This document shows positions 13,007-45,030 of a stretch of 64,000 nt of DNA, piece by piece. Made by a program: the position numbers and the translations under genes. This DNA comes from Planotetraspora kaengkrachanensis. Its GTDB lineage: Bacteria > Actinomycetota > Actinomycetes > Streptosporangiales > Streptosporangiaceae. The DNA lies in the NCBI RefSeq assembly GCF_016862895.1, contig NZ_BONV01000005.1:124001-188000 (forward strand), in the 5' to 3' direction. Under the pieces are notes generated by a model. The model was not told the DNA's origin. It saw only the letters and a program-made list of their open reading frames with translations, and searched no databases. The first letter of the stretch is position 1, and every line of letters starts with the position of its first letter.

Positions 13007-13912
13007 ATGAAGACAACGATCACCTCCCTCCGCCCGCGGGCCGGCGCATGGCGCCGTCTGGCGGCCGTCGTCTTCGGTGCGGCCGCGGGCGCCGCGCTGA
13101 TCGCGGCGCCCGCCCCGGCCGCGTCCGCGAGCACGCCGAGCGCGCTGTATGTCGCGCTCGGCGACTCCTACACCTCGGGTTACGGCCTGCCGACGCAACT
13201 GACCAGCCCGGCGATCATCGCGGGCTGCGGCCAGTCGTCCAGCAACTATCCGAAACTCGTGGCGGCGCACTACGGCATAGCGGTCGACGACCGCAGCTGC
13301 GCGGGCGCCACCACGGCGGCGTTCACCAACTGGCAGGGCGCCAACCCGCCCCAGACCAGCGCGCTCGGCCCGAACACCGTGCTGGTCACCATCGGCATGG
13401 GCGGAAACGACGTCGGATCCTCGATCATCACCACCTCGTGCCTGCAGGCCGGCGCCGCCAACCACAGCTGCCAGACGTCCCAGTTGAACAACCTGATCAA
13501 CACCAGCCTGGCGAACCTGGCCGCCCACCTGCCCGGCGACATCGCGAACATCAGGGCGCTCGCCCCGAACGCGGCCATCGTCTACGTCGGCTATCTGACC
13601 GGTCTGCCCAGCCTGTCCACGTGGACCGCGACCGGGTGCTCGTCCAACCTGCCGTACTACCCCGGCGACATCGCCTGGCTGAACAACTTCGGGCAGCGGC
13701 TCAACAACACCATCAGGACGGCCGCCCAGTCTCAGGGCGCGATCTTCGTCGACGCCCTGAACATGAGTGCCGGCCACGATCCGTGCCGGCCCGTCGGCAC
13801 CCGCTGGAACGAGGGGATCCACCCGGCCGCACCGGCGACCGCGACCTTCCACCCGAACCTCGCGGGCCACTCCGCGTACGCCTCAATGATCATCAGCGCT
13901 CTGGGAGGCTGA
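13007..13912 (+). CDS. Secreted SGNH/GDSL-family esterase or lipase
   Basis: Extracellular hydrolase of 301 residues. A signal peptide (basic RPRAGAWRR, hydrophobic run, ASA near 42) precedes the catalytic block I LGDSYTSGYG with Ser at about 54. Block III is GMGGNDV and the C-terminal block V HPNLAGH carries the catalytic His. Cys pairs in the mature part fit a secreted enzyme. ATG 13007 follows GGGAG. It may release acyl chains for the adjacent importer, but that link is only positional. A strong hairpin follows the stop. Confidence 0.92.
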   Translation: MKTTITSLRPRAGAWRRLAAVVFGAAAGAALIAAPAPAASASTPSALYVALGDSYTSGYGLPTQLTSPAIIAGCGQSSSNYPKLVAAHYGIAVDDRSCAGATTAAFTNWQGANPPQTSALGPNTVLVTIGMGGNDVGSSIITTSCLQAGAANHSCQTSQLNNLINTSLANLAAHLPGDIANIRALAPNAAIVYVGYLTGLPSLSTWTATGCSSNLPYYPGDIAWLNNFGQRLNNTIRTAAQSQGAIFVDALNMSAGHDPCRPVGTRWNEGIHPAAPATATFHPNLAGHSAYASMIISALGG

Positions 13913-30098: not shown

Positions 30099-31535
30099 GT
30101 GATCACTTACGACAGGCTGTACGTGGGCGGACGGTGGGTCGCCCCCGCCACCGGGGACGTCCTGGAGGTGCGTTCGCCGCACGACCGATCGCTGGTCGGG
30201 ACCGCGCCGCACGCCGCTCCCGCCGACGTCGACGATGCGGTCGCCGCCGCGCGGCGGGCGTTCGACGAGGGGCCCTGGCCGCGGATGAGCCCGCAGGAAC
30301 GGCGTGCGGTGGTGGAGCGCTTCTCCGAACTGCACACGGCGCGCGCCGAGGAGTTCGCGGCTCTGGTCACCGCCGAGAACGGCACACCGCTGTGGTTCAC
30401 GCGCTGGACGCACCAGTCGGGCGTCCCGGAGCAGACCGACGCGTACCTGCGCGCCGCCGCGGCCCTCGAGTGGGAGGAGCAGGTGGGCTCCGTGGGCGAG
30501 GTCCCGACGCTGCTGCGCCGCGAACCCGTGGGCGTGGTTGCCGCGGTGATCCCGTGGAACGCGCCTCACCAGTCGGCGCTGGTCAAGCTGGTGCCCGCGC
30601 TGCTCGCCGGGTGCACGGTGATTCTGAAGGCCTCTCCGGAGACGGCGCTGGACGCCCTGGCCCTCGCCGAGGTCTTCGACGAGGCCGGCCTCCCCGAGGG
30701 CGTGGTGAGCATCCTGCCCGCGGGCCGCGAGACGAGCGAGTACCTGGTCACCCATCCGGGCGTGGACAAGATCGCCTTCACCGGTTCCACCGCGGCGGGC
30801 CGGCGCATCGCCGCCATCGCGGGAGAGCAGCTCAAGAGGGTCAGCCTTGAGCTCGGCGGCAAATCCGCCTCGATCATCCTCGAGGACGCCGACCTGACGG
30901 CGACCGTGGAGGGCCTGAAACACCTGTCGCTGGGCAACAACGCAGAAAGCTGCGTGGCGCACACCCGGATCCTCGCCCCGCGCAGCCGGTACGAGGAGGT
31001 CGTCGGCGCGCTCAAGACCATGATGGAGGGACTGCGCGTCGGCGACCCCGCGGACCCGCGGACCTTCATCGGGCCGATGGTCCGCGCCGACCAGCAGCAG
31101 CGGGTCCGCTCCTACATCGAACTCGGCGTCGCCGAGGGCGCCAGGCTGGTCACCGGCGGGCCGGAGACGCCCGAGGGACTGGCAGGCGGGCACTACGTCC
31201 GTCCGACGCTGTTCGCCGACGTCGACGGCGGCATGCGGATCGCCCGTGAAGAGATCTTCGGCCCCGTCCTGGTCGTCATCCCCTTCGACGACGAGGACGA
31301 CGCCGTCCGCATCGCCAACGACTCCGAGTACGGCCTCGGCGGTGGCGTGTGGACCGCCGACCGGGACCGCGGCATACAGGTCGCCCGCGGGATCCGCGCC
31401 GGATGGCTGTCCGTCAACGGAGCCCCCGCCGCCTTCGACGGTGCCTTCGGCGGCTACAAGAGCAGCGGCATCGGCCGCGAGTTCGGCGCCACGGGCCTCG
31501 CCCAGTACATCGAGTACAAGACCATCGCCGCTTGA
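30099..31535 (+). CDS. Aldehyde dehydrogenase family protein
   Basis: NAD(P)-dependent oxidation of an aldehyde to the acid; 478 residues. IPWNAPHQSALVKLVPAL forms the cofactor region, FTGSTAAGRRI the nucleotide turn, the general base Glu is at about 251 (LELGGK) and the nucleophile Cys at about 285 (NAESCVAHTRI). GTG 30099 follows AGAGGGGAA. First gene of the TetR-controlled operon; the aldo/keto reductase starts 17 bp after its stop. Confidence 0.95.
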   Translation: MITYDRLYVGGRWVAPATGDVLEVRSPHDRSLVGTAPHAAPADVDDAVAAARRAFDEGPWPRMSPQERRAVVERFSELHTARAEEFAALVTAENGTPLWFTRWTHQSGVPEQTDAYLRAAAALEWEEQVGSVGEVPTLLRREPVGVVAAVIPWNAPHQSALVKLVPALLAGCTVILKASPETALDALALAEVFDEAGLPEGVVSILPAGRETSEYLVTHPGVDKIAFTGSTAAGRRIAAIAGEQLKRVSLELGGKSASIILEDADLTATVEGLKHLSLGNNAESCVAHTRILAPRSRYEEVVGALKTMMEGLRVGDPADPRTFIGPMVRADQQQRVRSYIELGVAEGARLVTGGPETPEGLAGGHYVRPTLFADVDGGMRIAREEIFGPVLVVIPFDDEDDAVRIANDSEYGLGGGVWTADRDRGIQVARGIRAGWLSVNGAPAAFDGAFGGYKSSGIGREFGATGLAQYIEYKTIAA

Positions 31536-35158: not shown

Positions 35159-35463
35159 CCGCGCGACAGTAGCGGGCCCCGGTGGAACGAGCGAGTGCAT
35201 TTCGCCGCCGTCAGGGGGTGGGTGAGGCTCCGAACAGCACGGACACGGGGGCTGCCCCCTCAAGGGCGACCGCCACTCAGAATGGAAAGGGCTCATTCTC
35301 CAACCGCTGTTCCTGGGTTCCGGCCCGAGCCGACGGTTCATCCGTCGACTCATCCGGCGGCAAAGACTTCAATAAGCCGTTCCAGCTCTTGACGTAACGG
35401 TCGTTTCCCGTCCTCGGTGCGGCATACCATGCGGCTCGCCGGAGCAGTGCATGGAACGCATAC
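35159..35463. other. 305-bp divergent intergenic region
   Basis: Between the leftward tandem P-loop gene and the rightward secreted hydrolase gene. It probably holds both promoters. No strong palindrome found. The right half is AT-richer than the surroundings, as is the hydrolase gene that follows. Confidence 0.45.
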
Positions 35464-36414
35464 ATGAAAGATTTTGAAATGTCCAAGCGAATTGCGGCCA
35501 TTTTTTGCGCCGTCATAATGGCGCTTGCCATGATGCCGGCCGATTCCTCCACGGCCTCGACCTCACGTCAGGAACGTTCGTTCGACTACGGACCGGCGGA
35601 GCTCACGGCGATTTGGCATCCGCTTTCCTCCGGCAGGCGACCTGTGGTCATCATGGTCCACGGTGGCGGTTGGCGCAGGGGCACACGAGAGTCGTTGAAC
35701 GACCACGCGAGATTCATGGCCGATCGCGGATATCAGGTGTTCAACCTGGACTATCGGCTGAAAGTGCCGTGGCCTGCCCCCCGAGACGACATCGCGGCCG
35801 CGTATGACTGGATCGCGGCCAGGGCTGGATACTTCGCCGCCGACCTGTCCGATGTCGTACTGTTCGGCGACTCGGCTGGGGGCCAGTTGGTCACCAATCT
35901 CGGGACATTGGGACAGGCGGGATACGTGTTCCGGGCAGTCGTCGGGATGTCACCGGTCGCCGACCCCGAGATGGCCTACGACGACGGCATGAAGACCGGC
36001 TCATCCGATCACGACAAGGTGCTTCGCGACGCGGCGTTCATTCTCGCCGGTGAGTGTGAGCCGGTGACATGCCCGGATACGTGGCGTTCGATGGCGTCGA
36101 AAACGAACGCCGGCGCAGGCGATCCGCCGATGTTTCTCATCCACTCGGCCGATGAATGGGTTCCGCCGAAACATTCGACTGAATTGTGCGCGGCGCTGGC
36201 GCGCCACGGTGTGCCGTGCACGGTGAAGGTGTATCCCGGCAGCGATCACGCCATGGGTGTCTGGAATCAATCGGCCGGTGACGTGATGTCGTTCATCGAT
36301 TTGGTGACCGGTGATTCGGCCGAAGAACGGGCCGCGGGCCGCGCGTTGATTGCGGGTGTTCACCTCGGGGCTGTCGTAAACATCCCTGCGGGGATCTCAC
36401 ATACCGCACAGTAA
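35464..36414 (+). CDS. Secreted alpha/beta hydrolase (BD-FAE/esterase-like)
   Basis: Exported hydrolase of 316 residues. Signal peptide MSKRIAAIFCAVIMALAMMP with a short leader before it, then HGGGWRRG (oxyanion hole), catalytic Ser in FGDSAGGQ, Asp in the HSADEWVPP region and His in PGSDHAMGVW. Carboxylesterase or acetyl-xylan/feruloyl-like activity is possible. Start may be ATG 35464 or the in-frame ATG 35479; neither has a strong ribosome site. Coding GC bias is weaker than in neighbours, hinting at acquisition. It lies 333 bp upstream of the dioxygenase cluster, so co-function is unproven. Confidence 0.9.
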   Translation: MKDFEMSKRIAAIFCAVIMALAMMPADSSTASTSRQERSFDYGPAELTAIWHPLSSGRRPVVIMVHGGGWRRGTRESLNDHARFMADRGYQVFNLDYRLKVPWPAPRDDIAAAYDWIAARAGYFAADLSDVVLFGDSAGGQLVTNLGTLGQAGYVFRAVVGMSPVADPEMAYDDGMKTGSSDHDKVLRDAAFILAGECEPVTCPDTWRSMASKTNAGAGDPPMFLIHSADEWVPPKHSTELCAALARHGVPCTVKVYPGSDHAMGVWNQSAGDVMSFIDLVTGDSAEERAAGRALIAGVHLGAVVNIPAGISHTAQ

Positions 36415-36747
36415 TCACCCTAGACGGAAAATTTCCCATACCTATGGTCGAGGCCGCCTATTCAGCGGGTATGCCCGGATCGGTCGAAATATACGGATGT
36501 AACGCTACCTCGAATTGAAGCCGTGGCACGCCAGGCGTCGATGTGAGCGGTATGCCCTGACCGCGACGGCACCGGGACACTCTGAGGATCCAGATTCCCG
36601 GCGTCGCCACCTGGCGGCCGGCTTTTCCTGCCGAAGTCGCCTGCACCTGGCCGGATCCGGCCGGGAGGGTTCGCCGCACTGCCGGACGCGCAGTCGCCGG
36701 CGAGCGATCCCGCCGATCGCGACTCGAGTTGGAAGAGGCGGTTCGCC
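36415..36747. other. 333-bp upstream region of the dioxygenase cluster
   Basis: No gene supported. Contains GGAAAATTTCC (36426-36436, a short palindrome) soon after the hydrolase stop and AT-richer DNA to about 36510, then GC-rich DNA leading into the GTG start with GAAGAGG upstream. A promoter for the PhyH-HisC-MFS operon is expected here. Confidence 0.45.
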
Positions 36748-37695
36748 GTGGCTTCGAACAAGAAATTCATGCTCACCGACGAGGAGATGGAACTCCTGCC
36801 CACGGAGGAGGACGTTCATTTCTACCGGGAGCACGGCTGGTATCTGTCCAATCGGTTGTTCACCGACGAAGAGATCGACGAAGTCAGGGAGAGCACCGAG
36901 CGGTTCTACGGGGGTCATCGAGATCGACGCCTCCCCAGAAAACCGCCGGCAGTGGCGTACTGGGCGCCCCAGTACGGCGACGTGCAGCGGCACAACGACT
37001 ACATCGCGTATGAAAACGCCACGGTGAGCCGGATCCTGTGCAAGCCCCTCGTCGGCGCCGTTGCGGCTCTGCTGATGGCGACACCCGAGGCGAGGCTCTG
37101 GAGCAGCACGCTCATCTACAAACCGGGCCGGCGCGACGAGCCGAGCAATGTCGTCCCCTGGCACATCGACCTCCATCACTGGAGTGTCTGCACATCGGAG
37201 AATCTCGTCACCGCGTTCGTTCCACTGCACGATTGCCGCGAGGAGCACGGAACGCTCCGGGTGATCGATGGAAGCCACAACTGGAAGGCGCTCCCCCTCG
37301 AAGCAGGCGACGACGAGACCCAGCATTTCGCGAACCGAGATCCAGAAACGCTGGAGCGAACTCTCGAGCGAAACGCGGAATACAACAACACTGAACTCAG
37401 GAAGATCTCGCTGGCCGTCGAGAAAGGCAAGGTCAGCTTCCACCACTGCAAGACCTACCACGGTAGCGGTCCGAATCTCAGCGGCGAACCGCGGCGTGTC
37501 GTGACGGTTCGTTTCCAAGACAGGGACAACGAATATCGAGAGTTCCGCAGGCCCGGCGGGGAAAATGCTCGCTACAGCCATGACGAACTGGTCCGCCGAA
37601 CCGGCGACGGCCGTCCCGACTATTCCGACCCGGATTACTGCCCGGTGGTCTGGCGTCAGCCGCAACCCTGTCCCGCCGAAGACGGCCGACGGTGA
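36748..37695 (+). CDS. Phytanoyl-CoA dioxygenase (PhyH)-family Fe(II)/2-oxoglutarate oxygenase
   Basis: Non-haem iron oxygenase of 315 residues, expected to hydroxylate a small molecule using 2-oxoglutarate and oxygen. The iron triad is visible: HxD at 139-141 (VPWHIDLHHW) and distal His at about 238 (HHCKTYHGS). The 2-oxoglutarate-binding Arg is near 249 (GEPRRVVTVRF). EEHGTLRVIDGSHNWK is the PhyH/EctD-type segment. GTG 36748 follows GAAGAGG. It leads a three-gene operon with an aminotransferase and an exporter, suggesting an amino acid or amino-acid-derived substrate. Not close enough to ectoine hydroxylase to assign. Confidence 0.9.
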   Translation: MASNKKFMLTDEEMELLPTEEDVHFYREHGWYLSNRLFTDEEIDEVRESTERFYGGHRDRRLPRKPPAVAYWAPQYGDVQRHNDYIAYENATVSRILCKPLVGAVAALLMATPEARLWSSTLIYKPGRRDEPSNVVPWHIDLHHWSVCTSENLVTAFVPLHDCREEHGTLRVIDGSHNWKALPLEAGDDETQHFANRDPETLERTLERNAEYNNTELRKISLAVEKGKVSFHHCKTYHGSGPNLSGEPRRVVTVRFQDRDNEYREFRRPGGENARYSHDELVRRTGDGRPDYSDPDYCPVVWRQPQPCPAEDGRR

Positions 37696-37723
37696 GGCTT
37701 CGACTCGAAGAAAGGCAGGAATC

Positions 37724-38788
37724 ATGAGCGGAAACGCGCCGCGAATGCGGAGCTCGCTGGACGCGGTGCCGGTATTCGAACCGGGCGTCGGCCGGCTGGG
37801 GGCGGTCAGCCACCACATGAACTTCAATGAGAACCATTTCGCGCCCTTGCCGAGCGTGCTCGACGTCGTGCGGGAGACCGCGGCGAGTTTCAACCGCTAC
37901 CCGGACATGCTGAACAACGACCTGGTCGAAGGCATCGCCGAGCACTTCGACGTGGCGCCCGAGAACGTCGCGGTCGGCGGCGGCGGAGCCGCGGTACTCC
38001 AGCAGCTCCTCCTGGCCGTGGTGGACCAAGGGGACGAGGTCGTGTTCGCGTGGCGTTCGTTCGAGGCCTATCCGATCTTGAGCTCGGTCGCCGGAGCCCG
38101 GCAGATCCGCGTGCCGCTCTCCGGCGCCGATCAGGACCTGGAGGCGATGCTCGATGTGATCACCGATCGGACGCGTCTGGTGTTCGTGTGCAACCCGAAC
38201 AACCCGACAGGCACCGCGGTCGATCACAAGGCCCTGGACGCCTTCATCGACCGTGCTCCGGAGCACGTGTTGATCGTTCTCGACGAGGCGTACCGGGAAT
38301 TCGTCCGGGCTCCCGAGATCCCGGACGGCATCAGGCGATACCGCGACCGGCCGAACGTCGCCGTGCTGCGCACCTTTTCCAAGGCGTACGGCCTCGCCGG
38401 CCTGCGGGTGGCATTCACGGTGGCGCATCCGGCGGTCGCGCGGGCCGTACGCAAGACGGCGTTGCCGTTCGGCGTCACTCGGCTGGCCGAGCGCGCCGCC
38501 CTGGCCTCCTTGCGGGCGACGGACGAACTCTCCGAGCGGGTGGAGGCGATCGTGAAGGAGCGGGAGCGCATGATGAGCACTCTCCGCGCACAGGGGTGGC
38601 CGATGGCCCAGACCGAGGCGAACTTCGTCTGGCTTCGCCTGGGAGAGCGGTCGGCCGACTTCGACGAAGCGTGTCAGCGCGCGGGCGTGCTCGTCCGGGC
38701 GTTCCCCGGCGAGGGGGTCCGGATCACGGTCGGTCCCGAACCCGCGAATGACATCGTTCTGTCCGTCGCCGCCGAATTCGCCCGCTGA
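37724..38788 (+). CDS. HisC-like PLP-dependent aminotransferase
   Basis: Fold-type I aminotransferase of 354 residues. PLP-binding Lys is at about 220 (TFSKAYGLAGLR), Asn in CNPNNPTG (156-163) and Asp in LDEAY (186-190). Overall pattern matches histidinol-phosphate aminotransferase, but no other his genes are near and the setting is a dioxygenase/exporter operon. It may therefore transaminate a secondary-metabolite intermediate or aromatic 2-oxo acid. ATG 37724 follows AGGCAGGA. Its TGA overlaps the ATG of the exporter gene (TGATG). Confidence 0.91.
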   Translation: MSGNAPRMRSSLDAVPVFEPGVGRLGAVSHHMNFNENHFAPLPSVLDVVRETAASFNRYPDMLNNDLVEGIAEHFDVAPENVAVGGGGAAVLQQLLLAVVDQGDEVVFAWRSFEAYPILSSVAGARQIRVPLSGADQDLEAMLDVITDRTRLVFVCNPNNPTGTAVDHKALDAFIDRAPEHVLIVLDEAYREFVRAPEIPDGIRRYRDRPNVAVLRTFSKAYGLAGLRVAFTVAHPAVARAVRKTALPFGVTRLAERAALASLRATDELSERVEAIVKERERMMSTLRAQGWPMAQTEANFVWLRLGERSADFDEACQRAGVLVRAFPGEGVRITVGPEPANDIVLSVAAEFAR

Positions 38789-40032
38789 TGAAGCCGCCGA
38801 CGCCTCCGCGGACCAAGCCGTCGCCGATGATGCTGGCGATCCTCATCTCGCTGAGCATCGGCGGCCTGATGTCGTCGGACATCAACCTGCCGGGGATGAA
38901 TCTGACGGCGACGTCTTTGGGCGTGCCGGTGTCCGCCGTACAGGCGTCGTTCGGGCCCTATCTGATCGGGTTGCTGGTCGCCCAGCTGCTCTATGGACCG
39001 CTGTCCGACGCGCACGGCCGCCGGCTGCCGATACTCGCCGGATTCTCGGTCTACGCACTGGCGTCGCTGGCCTGCGCCTTCCCCGGGGACATCACCGTCT
39101 TCACGGCCGCCAGGCTGCTTCAGGCGCTCGGCGCCGGCGCGGGCCTGGTCGTCGCCAGGGCGATGATCGGCGACCTGTACGACCGGGAGACCGCAGCGCG
39201 GGTTCTGGGCCTGATCATGCCGTGGATGGGCGCTTCGCCGGCGTTTGCCCCGTTCATCGGCGGCTATTTGACGCAATGGTTCTCGTGGCGAGCCCCGTTC
39301 CTGTTCACCGCCGCCCTGGCTGCGGTGACCGTGATCGCGGCGCTGTTCCGGCTGCCCGAGTCCCGGCCGCACGCGGCGCGAACCCGTCGTCTGCGGGAGA
39401 CCGCCGGGAACTACCGGAAACTGATCGACAGCCCAGGTTTCTGGCGTTACGGCGTGAACCTGGCCATGGGATACGCCGTATACACGGGCTACCTCGTCGG
39501 CTCACCGGCGATCTTCCACAGAATGGGTGTCGGCACCGCGGCCAACGGCTATTGCTACATCCTGATGTCGGTCGCTTTCATATCCGGCAACCTGGTTTCC
39601 CGCCGGTTGGTGAAGAGCACTCCCATCGATGAACTGCTGACACGCGCGCACCTCATCTTCGCGGGAGGGGCGCTGGCCTTCCTGGTGTTCTCCCTGTACA
39701 GCCCGCTCAACCTGTGGCCGATGCTGATTCTCATGGCTGTGGTCAACGTCGGCAACGGCTTCATCTTCCCGTTGTCGGTGGCAGGCGGAGTGACCGGGTT
39801 TCCCGCCTTCCCTGGTGCGGCATCCGGTCTGCTCGGGGCGTGTCAGATGGGTGGCGGAACCGTGGCGTCCTTCATCGTCAGCGTCAGCCCGAAGGACAGC
39901 CGAAGCATGAGCCTGTTCGTGACGGTGTGTGCGATAGCCGGTGTCGCGGCCTTCCTCGCCCTTCGAAGGCCGATTCAGCCCCCGGTCGTCGCCGGCCGAA
40001 CCTCTCCCCGCCACCCGGCCCCGGAGTCCTAG
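38788..40032 (+). CDS. Bcr/CflA-type MFS drug or metabolite exporter
   Basis: Twelve-helix transporter of 414 residues. The first helix SDINLPGMNL is characteristic of Bcr/CflA transporters, motif A is GPLSDAHGRRLPIL, followed by RLLQALGAGAGLVVARAMI. Translation is coupled to the aminotransferase gene by TGATG overlap, a strong sign that it exports the pathway product or gives self-protection. Its stop overlaps the stop of the convergent sigma-factor gene by 3 bp. Confidence 0.93.
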   Translation: MKPPTPPRTKPSPMMLAILISLSIGGLMSSDINLPGMNLTATSLGVPVSAVQASFGPYLIGLLVAQLLYGPLSDAHGRRLPILAGFSVYALASLACAFPGDITVFTAARLLQALGAGAGLVVARAMIGDLYDRETAARVLGLIMPWMGASPAFAPFIGGYLTQWFSWRAPFLFTAALAAVTVIAALFRLPESRPHAARTRRLRETAGNYRKLIDSPGFWRYGVNLAMGYAVYTGYLVGSPAIFHRMGVGTAANGYCYILMSVAFISGNLVSRRLVKSTPIDELLTRAHLIFAGGALAFLVFSLYSPLNLWPMLILMAVVNVGNGFIFPLSVAGGVTGFPAFPGAASGLLGACQMGGGTVASFIVSVSPKDSRSMSLFVTVCAIAGVAAFLALRRPIQPPVVAGRTSPRHPAPES

Positions 40033-40964
40033 CTCGGAGACCGGCTCATGGCGGTCTCCTGCTCGACCCGTGAGAGCTTCTCGGGGTTGCGCACCGCGTA
40101 GAGCCCGGTGATGAGGCCGTCGTCGATGCGTACCGCGATGACGGTGTTGATCTCGCCGTTCAGCCGGTGGATCAGGGCCGGGTGGCCGTTGACCTGTGCC
40201 GGCTGCAGCGACGCCGCCGCGCCGAACCTGCTCAGCCTGGCGGCCAGGAAGGCAACGCTTTCGGCCCCCACGATGGGCACAAGCGCGGCCTGCACGGCTC
40301 CCCCGCCGTCGCCCAGGAAGACGACATCCGGCGCGAGCAGGTCGAGCAGGCGTTGCAGGTCGCCGGTTTCGATCGCGCGCTGGAACGCCTTGAGCGCGTC
40401 GCGGGTCTCGTCCGGAGAAACGGGTCCGCGGGGCCGGCGCGCGGCGACGTGTGCCCGTGCCCGGTGGGCGATCTGGCGGACCGCGGCCGCGCTCTTGTCG
40501 ACGGCTTGCGCGATCTCGTCGTACTCCAGGTCGAACACCTCGCGTAGCACGAACACCGCCCGCTCGGTCGGCGCGAGCGTCTCCAGCACCAGCAGCATCG
40601 CCATCGAGAGGCTGTCGGCCAGTTCGACGTCCTCGGCGACGTCCGGCGCGGTCAGCAGCGGCTCGGGCAGCCAGGGGCCGACGTAGGACTCCTTGCGCCG
40701 GCGAAGCGTACGCAGCCGGCTCAGCGCCTGCCGGGTGGTGATCCGGACCAGGTAGGCACGCGGATCCCGCACCGCATCGAGATCGACGCCCGTCCACCGC
40801 AGCCAGGTCTCCTGCAGGACGTCTTCGGCGTCGGCCGCGGAGCCGAGCATCTCGTAGGCGACGGTGAACAGCAGGTTCCGGTGGGCGACGAACGCCTCGG
40901 TGGCGGAGTCCGTGCGGCCGCCGCCGGCGAGCGGCTCAGCCGCGTCCGTTGTCCTCTCGCTCAT
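40029..40964 (-). CDS. ECF41/SigJ-type RNA polymerase sigma factor
   Basis: Extracytoplasmic-function sigma factor of 311 residues with a fused C-terminal SnoaL-like domain. Region 2 is NLLFTVAYEMLGSAADAEDVLQ, region 4 APTERAVFVLREVFDLEYDE. The ECF41 linker and tail motifs are present: WLPEPL, DGGGA (usually DGGGK) and NPEKL. In this group the C-terminal domain regulates the sigma itself, so no anti-sigma gene is expected and none is seen. ATG 40964 follows CAGGAG. The start region carries a perfect ECF41 promoter, implying autoregulation, and the divergent flavoprotein gene is the likely target. Confidence 0.94.
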   Translation of the reverse strand: MSERTTDAAEPLAGGGRTDSATEAFVAHRNLLFTVAYEMLGSAADAEDVLQETWLRWTGVDLDAVRDPRAYLVRITTRQALSRLRTLRRRKESYVGPWLPEPLLTAPDVAEDVELADSLSMAMLLVLETLAPTERAVFVLREVFDLEYDEIAQAVDKSAAAVRQIAHRARAHVAARRPRGPVSPDETRDALKAFQRAIETGDLQRLLDLLAPDVVFLGDGGGAVQAALVPIVGAESVAFLAARLSRFGAAASLQPAQVNGHPALIHRLNGEINTVIAVRIDDGLITGLYAVRNPEKLSRVEQETAMSRSPS

Positions 40965-41008
40965 GACCGGCTCCTGCCTGTTGGTTCTCGTCTGCGCCAC
41001 ATGCACAT

Positions 41009-41035
41009 GACGCCGGTCCCCACCGTTTTGTGACA
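41009..41035 (-). promoter_or_regulatory. ECF41-type promoter of the sigma gene (TGTCACA-N16-CGTC)
   Basis: On the leftward strand TGTCACA (41035-41029) is followed after exactly 16 nt by CGTC (41012-41009), 45 bp before the sigma start codon. This is the published ECF41 target consensus with no mismatch, so the sigma factor very likely controls its own gene. Confidence 0.85.
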
Positions 41036-41069
41036 ACCGTGATCTATGGCGTATGTCACATCGCCGCGC

Positions 41070-41096
41070 TGTCACAGGGATCGGGTCGCCGGCATC
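41070..41096 (+). promoter_or_regulatory. Probable ECF41-type promoter of the flavoprotein gene (one mismatch)
   Basis: TGTCACA (41070-41076), 16 nt, then CATC (41093-41096) in place of CGTC, reading towards the oxidoreductase that starts at 41209. Another TGTCACA at 41054-41060 has no CGTC-like element at the right distance. Confidence 0.55.
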
Positions 41097-41208
41097 TCCA
41101 TGGTCGTCAGGACGCCGCGCGGACGATCCGCGCGGTACGCCACTCCATGAGCGAGGAGGGCTCGCCGACGCCCACCGCGGCGTGTCCGACCTGTGTGAAA
41201 GGAAAATC

Positions 41209-42549
41209 ATGAGTTCAGCGCTTGAAACCCTTCGCCGCGACTTCGGCGGCGACATCGTCGAACCGGGCGGAACGGAGTACGCATCGGCCAGCCGCTCGGT
41301 ACTGGCTTCGGGCAGTCCGGCCTATGTCCTGCGGCCCAAGAGCGTCGGGGACGTCCGAGCGGGTGTCCGATTCGCCGCCGGCGCGGGGCTTCCGCTGTCC
41401 GTGCGAGGCGGCGGCCATGCCTTCGCGGGCTTCGGCACCAACGACGGCGGCGTCGTGATCGACCTCAGCATGCTCGCAAAGGTGGAGATCATCGACCACG
41501 AACGTCACCTCGTGCGGATCGGCGGCGGCGCCACCTGGGGTGACGTCGCGGCCGCCCTGGCCCAGCATGGCCTGGCGATCTCCTCGGGCGACACCAAGAG
41601 CGTCGGTGTCGGAGGGCTGACGTTGACCGGCGGCATCGGCTGGAAGGTCAGGAAGTACGGCCTGGCCCTGGACAACATGGTCACCGCAGAGGTGGTCACA
41701 GCCGGCGGAACGGTCGAGCAAGCGAGCTCGGAAAACAACCCGGAGCTGTTCTGGGCCATCCGCGGAGGCGGCGGCAACTTCGGAATCGTGACCGCCTTCG
41801 AGTTCGTGGCACACCCTACGACAGACGTCTTCCACGGCAAGATCGCCTTCCCCGCATCGGAGGCGGCCACCGTGCTCCAAGGCTGGGCGGACCACCTCCG
41901 CACCGCCCCCGAAGAGCTCACCTCCACCGCGGACTTCGCCAATCCGTTCGCCGGCGGCCCCGAAGCGCCGGTCGAGATCCACGTCGCCTTCGACGGCGAT
42001 GACCCGGAACTCGCCGCTGAGGCGATCGACCCGATCCGCCGGCTCGGCACGGTGATCGACGACGACATCGCGCTCAAGCCCTACGCGGACACGCTCGTGG
42101 ACGGCGCGACACCGCCGCCCGGAATCCGGTTCGTCCCCCGAAGCGCATTCGTCGACAACGAATCGGTGCCCGAGGTCCTACAGATCCTTGCCGAGGCCGG
42201 CGCTTCGGAAGGCTCGCCGTTCATCTCCGTCCGCAGCGTCGGCGGTGCCGTGTCCCGAGTCCCCGACGACGCCACCGCCTACGCGCATCGCCAGGCGGAA
42301 TTGATGTTCGTGACCACCATCGCGGGTCCGGGACCGGTCGTCGAGGCCGCTCGTCCGGCTCTGGAGGCGATCTGGGAGAGACTCGCACCTCACATCAACG
42401 GCGCCTACGCCAACTTCCTCGCTTCCGCCACCGAGGAGGACGTCGCCGCGATCTATCCGACGGAGACCCACAAACGGCTCGCGGCGGTCAAGCGCCGGTA
42501 CGACCCCGCCAACCTGTTCGCCCGCAACCACAACATCCGGCCCCAGTAA
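41209..42549 (+). CDS. FAD-binding (BBE-like) oxidoreductase
   Basis: PCMH-type flavoenzyme of 446 residues. FAD-binding part: RPKSVGDVRAGVRFAAGAG, LSVRGGGHAFAGFG with the His that can bind flavin covalently, and VGGLTLTGGIGWKVRKYGLA; the second (Cys) attachment residue seems absent. The C-terminal berberine-bridge-like tail has YDPANLFARNHNI. ATG 41209 follows AAAGGA. Oxidoreductases are the usual neighbours and targets of ECF41 sigma factors, and the intergenic region carries matching promoters. Substrate unknown. Confidence 0.92.
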   Translation: MSSALETLRRDFGGDIVEPGGTEYASASRSVLASGSPAYVLRPKSVGDVRAGVRFAAGAGLPLSVRGGGHAFAGFGTNDGGVVIDLSMLAKVEIIDHERHLVRIGGGATWGDVAAALAQHGLAISSGDTKSVGVGGLTLTGGIGWKVRKYGLALDNMVTAEVVTAGGTVEQASSENNPELFWAIRGGGGNFGIVTAFEFVAHPTTDVFHGKIAFPASEAATVLQGWADHLRTAPEELTSTADFANPFAGGPEAPVEIHVAFDGDDPELAAEAIDPIRRLGTVIDDDIALKPYADTLVDGATPPPGIRFVPRSAFVDNESVPEVLQILAEAGASEGSPFISVRSVGGAVSRVPDDATAYAHRQAELMFVTTIAGPGPVVEAARPALEAIWERLAPHINGAYANFLASATEEDVAAIYPTETHKRLAAVKRRYDPANLFARNHNIRPQ

Positions 42550-42560
42550 GCCCTGGCGGG

Positions 42561-43661
42561 TCAGGGGGCGAGGGTGAACCAGTCGGTGAAGCCGCTCGGG
42601 TCGTGGCGGCCGATGGCGCCGTGCTCGAACAGGCCGTAACCGATCGCCCCATCGCAGGTGACCCGGCCCACGTGGTCGACGATGCCGAACATCATCCGGC
42701 CCGCCACCTCAGGCGACTCCAGGTCGTACGTGACACGCTCGGTGAAACCCGGGCCCTTCCAAACGCCGTGGGACCAGTCGGGATCGCTCCCGTAACCGGC
42801 GCCGATGTGCAGCGCCACCGGCAGCAGCGACTCGACCTCCAGCACGACGGGCTTGCCCTCCGCGCCGGTGCACCGGATCACCGCCCCGGTGGGGATCCGG
42901 GTGCCGGACGCGTACGAGACGGTCACCTGAGGCCAGCCGAGCTGCTCGACCCGGCCGTCGCGCCACACGCGGGTGCAGTCGTTGAGAGTGCGGAAGCCGT
43001 CCGGGTTCTCCTGGAGGATCAACACGACGGCGTAGTCGTCGAACCGCAACGGCATGTAGACCCACCACATGCCCTCGAACGGCGGGTCCGACGGCCGCCC
43101 GGCCGGCTCGGGCTCGCCCACCGGGCGGATGCCCCACGAGCGGTCGCGGGTGCCGACCCAGCGGTCGGGCGTCACCGCGATCTCCTCGCCGTCGACGACG
43201 ATGACACCGGACCACGTGCCGACCTGGGCGAAACGCTGCGCGTCGAGGGTGACGCGGCTACCGGAGCGCAGGATGTGCGGCTGCTCCTGGACGACGGGGA
43301 ACGAACCCTCCCACGTGAGGTCGAGGGCGACGCCCTCGGTCTCGTCCATGACGACCCGCAGCTTCTGCAGCGGCTCGACGACCTCGACGCGGTAGGGGCC
43401 CACCCGCTGGTTCAGCCGGTCGTCGTCGATCGCGTCGCCCAGGTGTACGGCCGTCTGCGTGCCGCCCCTGCGGACCAGCACGAAGGCGTCCTTGGTGCCG
43501 AGGTTCGGGTACCAGCCCATTCCGGAGATCACGAAGATGTCGCCCGTACGGTCGTGGGCGTTGAAGTAGCAACGGTCATAGAAGTTGCGGTCGCTGGTCG
43601 CGGCCCAGGTGACCGGCAGCGGCGCCTGATGGATGGGGTACTCGTCGAGCGGACTGACCAC
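42561..43661 (-). CDS. Conserved protein, DUF7064/7065-like, partner of a phosphotransferase
   Basis: A 366-residue soluble protein without signal peptide. Conserved-looking segments are RDRSWGIRPVGEPEP, GMWWVYMPLRFDDYAVVLIL and FVISGMGWYPNLGTKDAFVL. The beta-rich pattern suggests a CrtC/lipocalin-like fold. I associate it with uncharacterised actinobacterial DUF7064/7065 proteins, which is recalled and not shown. GTG 43661 starts 2 bp after the stop of the kinase gene, so the two are coupled. It converges on the flavoprotein gene (11 bp gap). Probably binds or modifies a lipophilic substrate; function unknown. Confidence 0.85.
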   Translation of the reverse strand: MVSPLDEYPIHQAPLPVTWAATSDRNFYDRCYFNAHDRTGDIFVISGMGWYPNLGTKDAFVLVRRGGTQTAVHLGDAIDDDRLNQRVGPYRVEVVEPLQKLRVVMDETEGVALDLTWEGSFPVVQEQPHILRSGSRVTLDAQRFAQVGTWSGVIVVDGEEIAVTPDRWVGTRDRSWGIRPVGEPEPAGRPSDPPFEGMWWVYMPLRFDDYAVVLILQENPDGFRTLNDCTRVWRDGRVEQLGWPQVTVSYASGTRIPTGAVIRCTGAEGKPVVLEVESLLPVALHIGAGYGSDPDWSHGVWKGPGFTERVTYDLESPEVAGRMMFGIVDHVGRVTCDGAIGYGLFEHGAIGRHDPSGFTDWFTLAP

Positions 43662-43663
43662 GT

Positions 43664-44791
43664 CTACGCACCTACCTCGTCGAGAAGCCTTTCGAGCAAC
43701 GGCCGCGAGTGCATGAGGGTCTCGATGTCGCCGGGGCGCTCCACCTCACCGAAGTGGATCTGCCGCGCGCCGGTGCGCATGAACACGATGCACCATCGCA
43801 CGCCGTTGTACACGTGGTACCACTGCAGATCGCCCAGGGCCACACCGGTGAGCTTCTCGTACGTCGCCTTCGCGTCCTCCTCACGGAGGAAGTGCGGCAT
43901 GCCCGGCATCTCCATCACCGCGGTGATCGACTCGAAGACCTGGTGGGCGAAGATCAACCATGACATGTCGAGCTCGCGCGGGCCGATCGCGGCCATCTCC
44001 CAGTCGAGCACGGCGACCGGCGCGAAGTCGCGGTAGAGGATGTTGCCGATCCGCGAGTCGCCCCAGCTGAGGACCGTGTCACCGGCCTCCGGCAGGTTCG
44101 CCGTCAGCCAGGCCAGACCGCGCTCGACGAGCGGTGAACGGTCCAGGTCGGTCACCGCGAAGTCGTACCACGCGCGCGTGCGCGCCAGGTTCCGGGCGAG
44201 CAGGCTGTCGCCGTCCGCGCCCTCGCGCGGCGTGAGGAACCCGAACGTCGAGGACGCGTCGGGGATGGCGTGCAGCTTGGCGATCATCTCGACCGAGACG
44301 TCCTGCAGGCGGCGCTGCTCCTCCGGTGTGGCGTCGTACAACCAGTTGGCGCCGAAGGTGTACGGCAGCACGTCGGGCGGGACGACGCCCTCGACCCTGT
44401 CCATGAGGAAGAACGGGCTGCCGATCACCTCACCCGTCGGCTCCATCCACCGAACCCGCGGGACGGGCACGTCGGTCAGTTCGCCGACCAGTCGCATGGC
44501 GTCGTACTGGTCCTGAAGGGCGTATTCGGGGAACACGGGAACGTCTTCCGCGGCCGGAGTGACGCGCGCGACGAAACGGCCGGTCCGCGGCAGTCCGTTC
44601 TCGGTCCAGGTGGCGTCGACGAACAACGTCTCCGACGACAGGCCGTTGGCGTCGGCCCCCTGGTGCACCACGACGTCGGGATTCGAGGCGCCGGCGGGCA
44701 GGACGGTCGCCAGCCACTCGGCGAGACGGGGAGGAAAGGCATGGGGATCGCGGCCGGAACGCCGCATCATCTTCTCTGCCGGGCGGTCCAT
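43664..44791 (-). CDS. APH-type phosphotransferase
   Basis: Kinase-fold protein of 375 residues. The catalytic loop reads SWGDSRIGNILYRD: the usual HGD has Trp for His but the Asp and Asn are kept. The metal site is LDWEMAAIGPRELD. FFLMDRVEGVVPPDVLPY is typical of actinobacterial homologues near lipid and steroid genes. The ATG at 44791 has GGAGGGAG upstream, preferred to an earlier in-frame start. First gene of a two-gene operon behind a TAGAAC-N2-GTTCTA palindrome. Probably phosphorylates a hydroxylated acyl-CoA or sterol-derived compound rather than an antibiotic; inferred. Confidence 0.9.
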   Translation of the reverse strand: MDRPAEKMMRRSGRDPHAFPPRLAEWLATVLPAGASNPDVVVHQGADANGLSSETLFVDATWTENGLPRTGRFVARVTPAAEDVPVFPEYALQDQYDAMRLVGELTDVPVPRVRWMEPTGEVIGSPFFLMDRVEGVVPPDVLPYTFGANWLYDATPEEQRRLQDVSVEMIAKLHAIPDASSTFGFLTPREGADGDSLLARNLARTRAWYDFAVTDLDRSPLVERGLAWLTANLPEAGDTVLSWGDSRIGNILYRDFAPVAVLDWEMAAIGPRELDMSWLIFAHQVFESITAVMEMPGMPHFLREEDAKATYEKLTGVALGDLQWYHVYNGVRWCIVFMRTGARQIHFGEVERPGDIETLMHSRPLLERLLDEVGA

Positions 44792-44837
44792 CGAACTCCC
44801 TCCGGGCGACGCATTCTGAATTCTGCGGAAACCCCAG

Positions 44838-44851
44838 TAGAACAAGTTCTA
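44838..44851. promoter_or_regulatory. KstR-like operator palindrome
   Basis: TAGAACAAGTTCTA fits the mycobacterial KstR consensus TnnAACnnGTTnnA exactly and has perfect 6-bp arms. It is 46 bp upstream of the phosphotransferase start. No kstR gene is in the window, so the cognate TetR would be encoded elsewhere. Confidence 0.6.
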
Positions 44852-45030
44852 GACTCGCGATTACATTACACCGGGAACGGCGAGGGAAATAGCGGGAATT
44901 TCCGGGCCTGTCACGCTCCGAGCCCTTCCTGCCACGGATGCCAGGCATGCCGTAAACCCGCAGCTCATGAGCGGGCGTGAGCTCCGGACGGCGAAAGACG
45001 CACTGGAGACCATCTCAGGAAGGAACCCAG

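What the first reader, a model, noticed from the sequence alone, without database searches (positions are those of the whole stretch)
36748..40032. Compact PhyH dioxygenase - HisC-like aminotransferase - MFS exporter operon
Seen: an intact Fe(II)/2-oxoglutarate oxygenase (HxD and distal His present), a PLP aminotransferase with all active residues, and a Bcr/CflA-type exporter. The last two genes overlap by TGATG. No his genes, NRPS or PKS lie nearby. Family knowledge: such oxygenases often hydroxylate free amino acids or their oxo-acids. Inference: a minimal pathway that makes and exports a hydroxylated or transaminated amino-acid-like metabolite, perhaps with the upstream secreted hydrolase. 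I do not recognise a described cluster with this content.
Basis: partly seen in the sequence, partly recalled or inferred. Interest (0 to 1): 0.72.

Follow-up and report, generated by a model that had tools for sequence, protein, structure and literature searches.

The report
Relocating aromatic amino-acid oxygenase operon
A compact four-gene unit in the soil bacterium Planotetraspora probably oxidises an aromatic amino acid (or its oxo-acid), converts it with a specialised aminotransferase and exports it; its oxygenase belongs to a family usually found beside enzymes for unusual phenylglycine-type amino acids, but its reaction is not known.

Summary
The three genes are real: PhyH oxygenase 36748-37695, aminotransferase 37724-38788, MFS 38788-40032 (TGATG overlap). 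The unit is really four genes: the signal-bearing hydrolase (35464-36414) travels with them. The 4.7-kb block is in 4 of 5 Planotetraspora genomes, in three different neighbourhoods, with dN/dS 0.10-0.53. The aminotransferase is not HisC but a diverged extra copy of the actinobacterial aromatic-amino-acid aminotransferase; HisC and the housekeeping copy lie elsewhere. Outside the genus, 58 of 62 loci examined for this oxygenase carry a 4-hydroxymandelate-synthase-like gene near it, often with hydroxymandelate-oxidase-like, HpgT-like or prephenate-dehydrogenase genes. Some compact, ketosynthase-free versions carry an exporter; one has, 4.6 kb away, the best match (61-62%) outside Planotetraspora that I found to the window's MFS. 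Best reading: oxidation, transamination and export of a free aromatic amino acid, a Planotetraspora variant in which an aromatic aminotransferase stands in place of the mandelate route. Substrate, product and reaction are unknown. Both enzymes have Planotetraspora-specific changes at or near the active site (K/R to Leu beside HxD; Val to Ala in the aminotransferase pocket). New variant of a known kind.

The parts
35464..36414 (+). alpha/beta hydrolase (BD-FAE / Abhydrolase_3 type) with an N-terminal signal-like stretch and a GDSAG motif; part of the conserved block
   Evidence: Pfam BD-FAE 83.9 bits; beside PhyH in 4 Planotetraspora loci. Signal and motif read by eye from the translation, no signal predictor run.
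36748..37695 (+). PhyH-family Fe(II)/2-oxoglutarate oxygenase; H139, D141, H238, R249; L142 where 61 of 61 near relatives have K or R
37724..38788 (+). diverged aromatic-amino-acid aminotransferase (PRK03321 / Pat subfamily), PLP lysine K220
38788..40032 (+). Bcr/CflA-type MFS transporter, overlapping the aminotransferase stop (TGATG)
35349..40019 (+). extent of the block shared with P. thailandica (91.8% nt identity) without matching flanks in the stretches compared; the P. mira match lies within 35362-39968

Best explanation
The four genes are a self-contained unit for making and exporting a small aromatic amino-acid-type metabolite. The PhyH enzyme oxidises (most simply, hydroxylates) an aromatic amino acid or aromatic 2-oxo-acid of the phenylpyruvate/tyrosine type, using O2 and 2-oxoglutarate. 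The adjacent diverged aromatic aminotransferase interconverts the oxo-acid and amino-acid forms of the substrate or product. The Bcr/CflA transporter exports the product, and the secreted hydrolase may act on an esterified or conjugated form outside the cell. The unit is a Planotetraspora variant of compact operons in which the same PhyH family works with a 4-hydroxymandelate-synthase-like enzyme, a hydroxymandelate-oxidase-like enzyme, an HpgT-like aminotransferase and an exporter. Shown: gene content, co-conservation, the family links and the residue changes. Inferred: the substrate class, the direction of transport, and the role of the hydrolase.
For: The block is present in 4 of 5 Planotetraspora genomes in three different neighbourhoods. 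The aminotransferase has Phe at the position that is Phe in the characterised aromatic aminotransferase of M. tuberculosis and Tyr in HisC (PMC4703992, abstract and passages; own alignment), and PRK03321 scores 477 bits against a cut-off of 374. Of 62 non-Planotetraspora loci of this PhyH family, 58 hold an HmaS-like gene: 51 within 500 bp on the same strand, and the other 7 about 1.2 kb away on the same strand with the Hmo-like gene between (L017 and L208 are the same contig by length, so 57 of 61 distinct). The MFS has its best match outside the genus, 61-62%, 4.6 kb from such a PhyH in L194; the other matches found are 45-49%.
Against: The window unit has no HmaS/Hmo/HpgT neighbours, and the only HPPD-superfamily hit in this genome is an ordinary-looking HPPD, so the phenylglycine link is by family, not by pathway. 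The HmaS label itself is mine: the curated model calls two of these neighbours 4HPPD above its cut-off and the S. angustmyceticus gene is annotated hppD. PhyH in Planotetraspora lacks the K/R next to HxD, so its substrate may differ. The nearest solved folds (SnoN, SnoK, MysH, GriE, a proline hydroxylase, EctD; 17-22% identity) include an epimerase and a carbocyclase, so the chemistry need not be hydroxylation. Some Bcr/CflA relatives are importers by name (FslD; PunC is called a transporter). In P. phitsanulokensis the MFS match splits into two frames. 3 of 40 Streptomycetaceae loci (L229-L231) have the PhyH without HmaS or HpgT, and six more distant PhyH loci (L068-L072, L107; 36-44%), left out of the 62, have no HmaS either. 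The PhyH-aminotransferase-MFS order was not seen outside the genus.
Confidence: 0.5

Rival explanations
1. The unit protects the cell: it oxidises and transaminates an incoming toxic aromatic compound or antibiotic, and the MFS pumps it out.
For: Bcr/CflA transporters include drug pumps; the unit is small, sits in different surroundings in different species, and has no scaffold-building enzyme.
Against: Many PhyH relatives sit in biosynthetic loci with HmaS-like and sometimes prephenate dehydrogenase genes; a specialised aromatic aminotransferase would be an unusual detoxification enzyme (inference).
Confidence: 0.15
2. The unit is for uptake and use: the secreted hydrolase frees an aromatic acid or amino acid outside, the MFS imports it, and PhyH plus aminotransferase bring it into central metabolism.
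For: The hydrolase is part of the block; FslD in the same transporter family is named as an importer and PunC as a nucleoside transporter.
Against: The block holds only these four genes; the nearest relative of the MFS lies by an HmaS-PhyH operon, and other compact operons carry a DMT transporter there.
Confidence: 0.15
3. The aminotransferase is simply the strain's histidinol-phosphate or housekeeping aromatic aminotransferase and the neighbourhood is accidental.
For: Closest curated name is histidinol-phosphate transaminase.
Against: HisC lies in a hisD-hisC-hisB stretch with hisF nearby and a separate Pat exists in the same genome; the trio enzymes form their own clade with SH-aLRT 100 on a long branch; the four genes stay together in differing surroundings.
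Confidence: 0.03
4. PhyH here makes an epimerised, desaturated, ring-closed or halogenated product rather than a hydroxylated one.
For: Best fold matches are the epimerase SnoN and the carbocyclase SnoK.
Against: The HxD Asp is present, which argues against halogenation (the halogenase rule is recalled); identity to SnoN/SnoK is only about 20-22%.
Confidence: 0.17

Closest known systems
Compact HmaS-Hmo-PhyH-HpgT-exporter operons (annotated plasmid record NZ_CP104318.1, Streptomyces angustmyceticus; Wenjunlia vitaminophila; four unnamed Streptomycetaceae genomes)
   Same: Same PhyH family (53% identity between the S. angustmyceticus and window proteins), an aminotransferase and an exporter near it, no ketosynthase found in the loci (full annotation seen for S. 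angustmyceticus only)
   Different: The Planotetraspora unit lacks HmaS and Hmo, uses another aminotransferase subfamily, adds a secreted hydrolase, and has a changed residue next to HxD
4-hydroxyphenylglycine pathway of glycopeptide clusters (Pdh, HmaS, Hmo, HpgT; recalled)
   Same: PhyH relatives lie with HmaS-like, Hmo-like, HpgT-like and prephenate dehydrogenase genes in various combinations
   Different: That pathway has no PhyH enzyme (recalled); none of its genes was found beside the window unit
Aromatic aminotransferase ArAT (Rv3772, PDB 4r2n/4r5z)
   Same: 307 bits; F110 and F246 positions, PLP lysine and arginines conserved
   Different: Val86, Tyr15 and Ser85 positions are Ala, Phe and Gly in the window protein
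EctD ectoine hydroxylase, GriE leucine hydroxylase, MysH, SnoK/SnoN
   Same: PhyH fold
   Different: 17-22% identity in the fold search; EctD model score 29 bits against a cut-off of 336.5
Bcr/CflA MFS transporters
   Same: TIGR00710 above cut-off
   Different: None of the equivalog models among the 25 best listed (of 52) reaches its cut-off

Membership tests
PhyH Fe(II)/2OG oxygenase | HxD...H iron triad and 2OG arginine | tested here: met
   H139, D141, H238, R249 invariant in 31 of 31 rows and in 74 of 74 rows; Pfam 87 bits
PhyH Fe(II)/2OG oxygenase | fold of the family | tested here: met
   AlphaFold2 mean pLDDT 89.7; best Foldseek hits are PhyH-type 2OG enzymes, E down to 2.2e-17
Ectoine hydroxylase EctD | score above the equivalog cut-off TIGR02408 | tested here: not met
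   29 bits against 336.5
HisC histidinol-phosphate aminotransferase | equivalog score and histidine-gene context | tested here: not met
   TIGR01141 266 bits, just below its 276.55 cut-off; HisC itself is in a his operon elsewhere
HisC histidinol-phosphate aminotransferase | Tyr at the Y127 position | tested here: not met
   Phe in 4 of 4 trio proteins, Tyr in 2 of 2 HisC rows (meaning of the residue from PMC4703992, passages)
Actinobacterial aromatic aminotransferase (Pat/ArAT) | PRK03321 score and Phe110/Phe246 pocket | tested here: met
   477 bits against 374; both Phe kept
Actinobacterial aromatic aminotransferase (Pat/ArAT) | transamination of Phe, Tyr, Trp | not testable with these tools
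   needs enzyme assay; pocket residue V86 is Ala here
Bcr/CflA MFS | TIGR00710 cut-off | tested here: met
   248.9 against 200.9 bits
4-hydroxyphenylglycine pathway | HmaS, Hmo and HpgT in the unit or genome | tested here: not met
   none in the block; HmaS search of the own genome found one hit, an HPPD with Phe at the diagnostic position; Hmo and HpgT were not searched in the own genome

The most novel reading that the evidence does not exclude
This PhyH family catalyses an undescribed oxidation at the level of 4-hydroxyphenylpyruvate, tyrosine or 4-hydroxymandelate, feeding a large group of uncharacterised actinobacterial clusters; Planotetraspora carries a relocating, mandelate-free version in which a re-tuned aromatic aminotransferase and a changed oxygenase pocket make and export a new free aromatic amino acid.
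Probability: 0.35. Interest if true: 0.68.

Novelty: new variant of a known kind. Interest (0 to 1): 0.5.

Why it matters
It offers a four-gene system, small enough to express whole, for finding what the PhyH enzymes do in the many clusters that pair them with 4-hydroxymandelate-synthase-like enzymes (79 of 394 sampled Streptomycetaceae genomes hold this PhyH family). Solving the reaction in the minimal unit would give a function to that family and possibly a new aromatic amino acid.

Tried and rejected
HisC/housekeeping reading: rejected. EctD-like ectoine hydroxylation: rejected on score; ectoine genes were not looked for. Halogenase: unlikely because the HxD Asp is present (rule recalled). 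Phenylglycine pathway inside this genome: the only HmaS-type hit is an HPPD; Hmo and HpgT were not searched there. Whether the Planotetraspora PhyHs are nested inside the HmaS-linked clade or sister to it could not be resolved (HmaS-linked rows on one side of a branch in 24% of 200 bootstrap trees; basal fork left open). An early run used the aminotransferase query out of frame; and later used the right frame. Literature: 10 of 10 searches used., which asked for PhyH or 2-oxoglutarate terms together with HmaS, hydroxyphenylglycine or HPPD terms, found no paper. One search listed 13 papers; two of them hold both 'hydroxymandelate synthase' and 'phytanoyl-CoA' (PMC12816917, PMC3739788), have titles on human enzymes or disease, and were not opened. 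One search listed two papers, neither holding the PhyH term. The library holds open-licence PMC papers only, so this is weak evidence of novelty. The KS/ACP/AMP-ligase clusters around the PhyH relatives could not be tied to a known compound.
Full report
The window lies in a genome placed with Planotetraspora (G000, contig 5; nearest named record P. phitsanulokensis, PhyH 95% identical).

Unit boundaries. Nucleotide comparison of window 26001-48000 with 21-kb loci shows, in P. thailandica, one continuous match, 35349-40019 at 91.8% identity, and no other match over 120 bp; P. mira matches within 35362-39968 in two pieces (74% and 82%); P. phitsanulokensis shares the surroundings too, 35312-44902 at 95% and more upstream. 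The block therefore contains the signal-bearing hydrolase at 35464-36414 as well. PhyH and the trio aminotransferase are in 4 of 5 Planotetraspora genomes and absent from G204; G204 also gave no MFS match at 1e-90. The surroundings differ in three ways: the downstream FAD oxidase of the window passes 1e-100 only in the window genome and P. phitsanulokensis, and the ortholog of an upstream gene (30099-31532, an aldehyde-dehydrogenase-like protein by my reading, no family search run) lies about 100 kb from the block in P. thailandica. dN/dS is 0.10-0.28 for PhyH, 0.16-0.19 for the aminotransferase, 0.22-0.24 for the MFS and 0.23-0.53 for the hydrolase; P. phitsanulokensis was left out for the MFS because its match splits into two frames.

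Aminotransferase. It scores 477 bits against PRK03321 (cut-off 374) and 266 against hisC (cut-off 276.55). Its best solved relative is 4r2n, the M. tuberculosis enzyme that PMC4703992 shows to be an aromatic-amino-acid aminotransferase without HisC activity (abstract and passages seen). The genome has HisC in a hisD-hisC-hisB stretch with hisF nearby, and a second Pat at 55% identity. All 61 of 61 genomes searched in the order, the window's included, have a match at 1e-80 or better. In a 40-row tree the four trio enzymes form one clade (SH-aLRT 100) on a branch of 0.88, apart from the five housekeeping Pats of the genus (quick method, no bootstrap). The Phe that marks aromatic aminotransferases is kept, while positions equal to Val86, Ser85 and the lid Tyr15 are Ala, Gly and Phe in 4 of 4 trio rows against Val, Ser and Tyr in 33 of 33 other Pat rows (the third Pat of P. 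thailandica was set apart: Val, Ser, His). This suggests a re-shaped aromatic pocket.

Oxygenase family. With the window query, 3 of 396 genomes sampled from the phylum, the own one included, pass 1e-40; with the S. angustmyceticus query, 79 of 394 Streptomycetaceae genomes pass 1e-60. I examined 62 loci: 21 (L020 dropped because its gene is cut; six distant loci, L068-L072 and L107, not counted and without HmaS), one plasmid, and 40 of the 109 matches listed. An HmaS-like gene is in 58 of 62, within 500 bp on the same strand in 51 and about 1.2 kb away on the same strand in 7; the four without it are L018, L229, L230 and L231. L017 and L208 are the same Wenjunlia contig by its length. Other neighbours within the loci: Hmo-like 32, HpgT-like 23, KS 46, E1-alpha 31, DUF3050 15, prephenate dehydrogenase 15, S. 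angustmyceticus-type DMT 6 of 62; flanks are limited, so these are lower bounds. Of four loci lacking an HpgT-like gene whose flanks I extended, three had one farther out.

Labels. HmaS-like rests on PDB 2r5v as best hit over HPPDs for one protein, L015 (that 2r5v is HmaS is recalled), and on a Tyr in the last motif in 20 of 20 sequences, and in S. angustmyceticus, where the genome's own HPPD has Phe (its meaning is recalled). Against it, the NCBIfam model 4HPPD covers two of them above its cut-off and the S. angustmyceticus gene is annotated hppD. The Streptomycetaceae loci L192-L231 were not checked for the Tyr. HmaS turns 4-hydroxyphenylpyruvate into (S)-4-hydroxymandelate (PMC13111500, passages). 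The Hmo label is weaker: 4-hydroxymandelate oxidase 5zzp scores 295 bits, but lactate and glycolate oxidases score higher. HpgT-like is my label; the hits are multi-substrate and aminoadipate-type aminotransferases and MppQ.

Compact operons. In S. angustmyceticus the order is HmaS-Hmo-PhyH-HpgT-DMT transporter-prephenate dehydrogenase (annotation plus my labels). Similar KS-free loci are L017/L208 and L192-L195. In L194 no DMT was found; instead an MFS 61-62% identical to the window's lies 4.6 kb from the PhyH, with a PhzF-like gene on the other strand between (PhzF read by eye). In 388 Streptomycetaceae genomes the other seven MFS matches that pass 1e-70 are 45-49%, and in 342 genomes of the order only four Planotetraspora and one 46% match pass 1e-90. 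Only four or five candidates per genome were scored, so a better match could have been missed.

Pocket change. In 61 of 61 near relatives the residue after the HxD Asp is K or R (31 R, 30 K); it is Leu in 4 of 4 Planotetraspora proteins. Tyr144 becomes His (59 Tyr and 2 Phe of 61), Gln119 becomes Ser (56 Gln and 5 Asn), Phe118 becomes Trp (55 Phe, 6 Trp). That these residues touch the substrate is inferred from their nearness in sequence to the iron site, not shown. The Planotetraspora clade has support 100/99 on a long branch. The substrate is therefore probably related but not identical.

Model. The oxygenase family is tied by neighbourhood to tyrosine-derived oxo- and hydroxy-acids; the aminotransferase is of the aromatic type; an exporter is found in both kinds of compact operon. 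Common ground of the two contexts is the phenylpyruvate/tyrosine level, so I place the oxidation there (inference). The predicted structure (pLDDT 89.7) has only distant solved relatives, so neither substrate nor reaction can be read from the fold. Direction of transport and the role of the hydrolase are open.

Literature. Searches found no paper with the PhyH/2-oxoglutarate and HmaS/hydroxyphenylglycine/HPPD terms asked; two papers on human enzymes hold both words and were seen as a listing only; the papers were seen as a listing only. The kind of thing is known (a small amino-acid-modifying operon); the combination and the HmaS-PhyH link appear undescribed within what I could search.

Noticed in passing
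L108:2761-10469 (P. thailandica): A third Pat-type aminotransferase lies with a DAHP synthase, an Rv2466c-like protein, a DUF3050 protein (70% identical to that of L019) and an AMP-binding/PP-binding/thioesterase protein: another probable aromatic cluster that recruited Pat.
   Followed up: partly
L009-L016, L019, L059, L061-L066, L106, L196-L228 (not every one): A widespread cluster type: AMP ligases, ACP-like proteins, ketosynthases, HmaS-like, PhyH, often E1 alpha/beta, DUF3050 or prephenate dehydrogenase. No known product could be assigned. DUF3050 is the family of MgoB of the mangotoxin operon (PMC3298696, passages).
   Followed up: partly
L006:10001-13324: In P. phitsanulokensis the match to the window MFS splits into two frames near 13055, and its PhyH stops ten residues earlier.
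   Followed up: no
L229, L230, L231: Three Streptomycetaceae PhyH loci without HmaS or HpgT group together in the tree and carry similar-looking neighbour proteins (by eye), so a different pathway may use a branch of the same oxygenase.
   Followed up: no
L159, L160 (Planktothrix agardhii plasmids): A 40% identical PhyH lies on plasmids about 5.4 kb from a PLP aminotransferase, with an alkene reductase beyond it.
   Followed up: no
window 40029-41255: A SigJ-type sigma factor gene lies convergent to the MFS, overlapping its end by four bases as ORFs; it is outside the block shared with P. thailandica.
   Followed up: no
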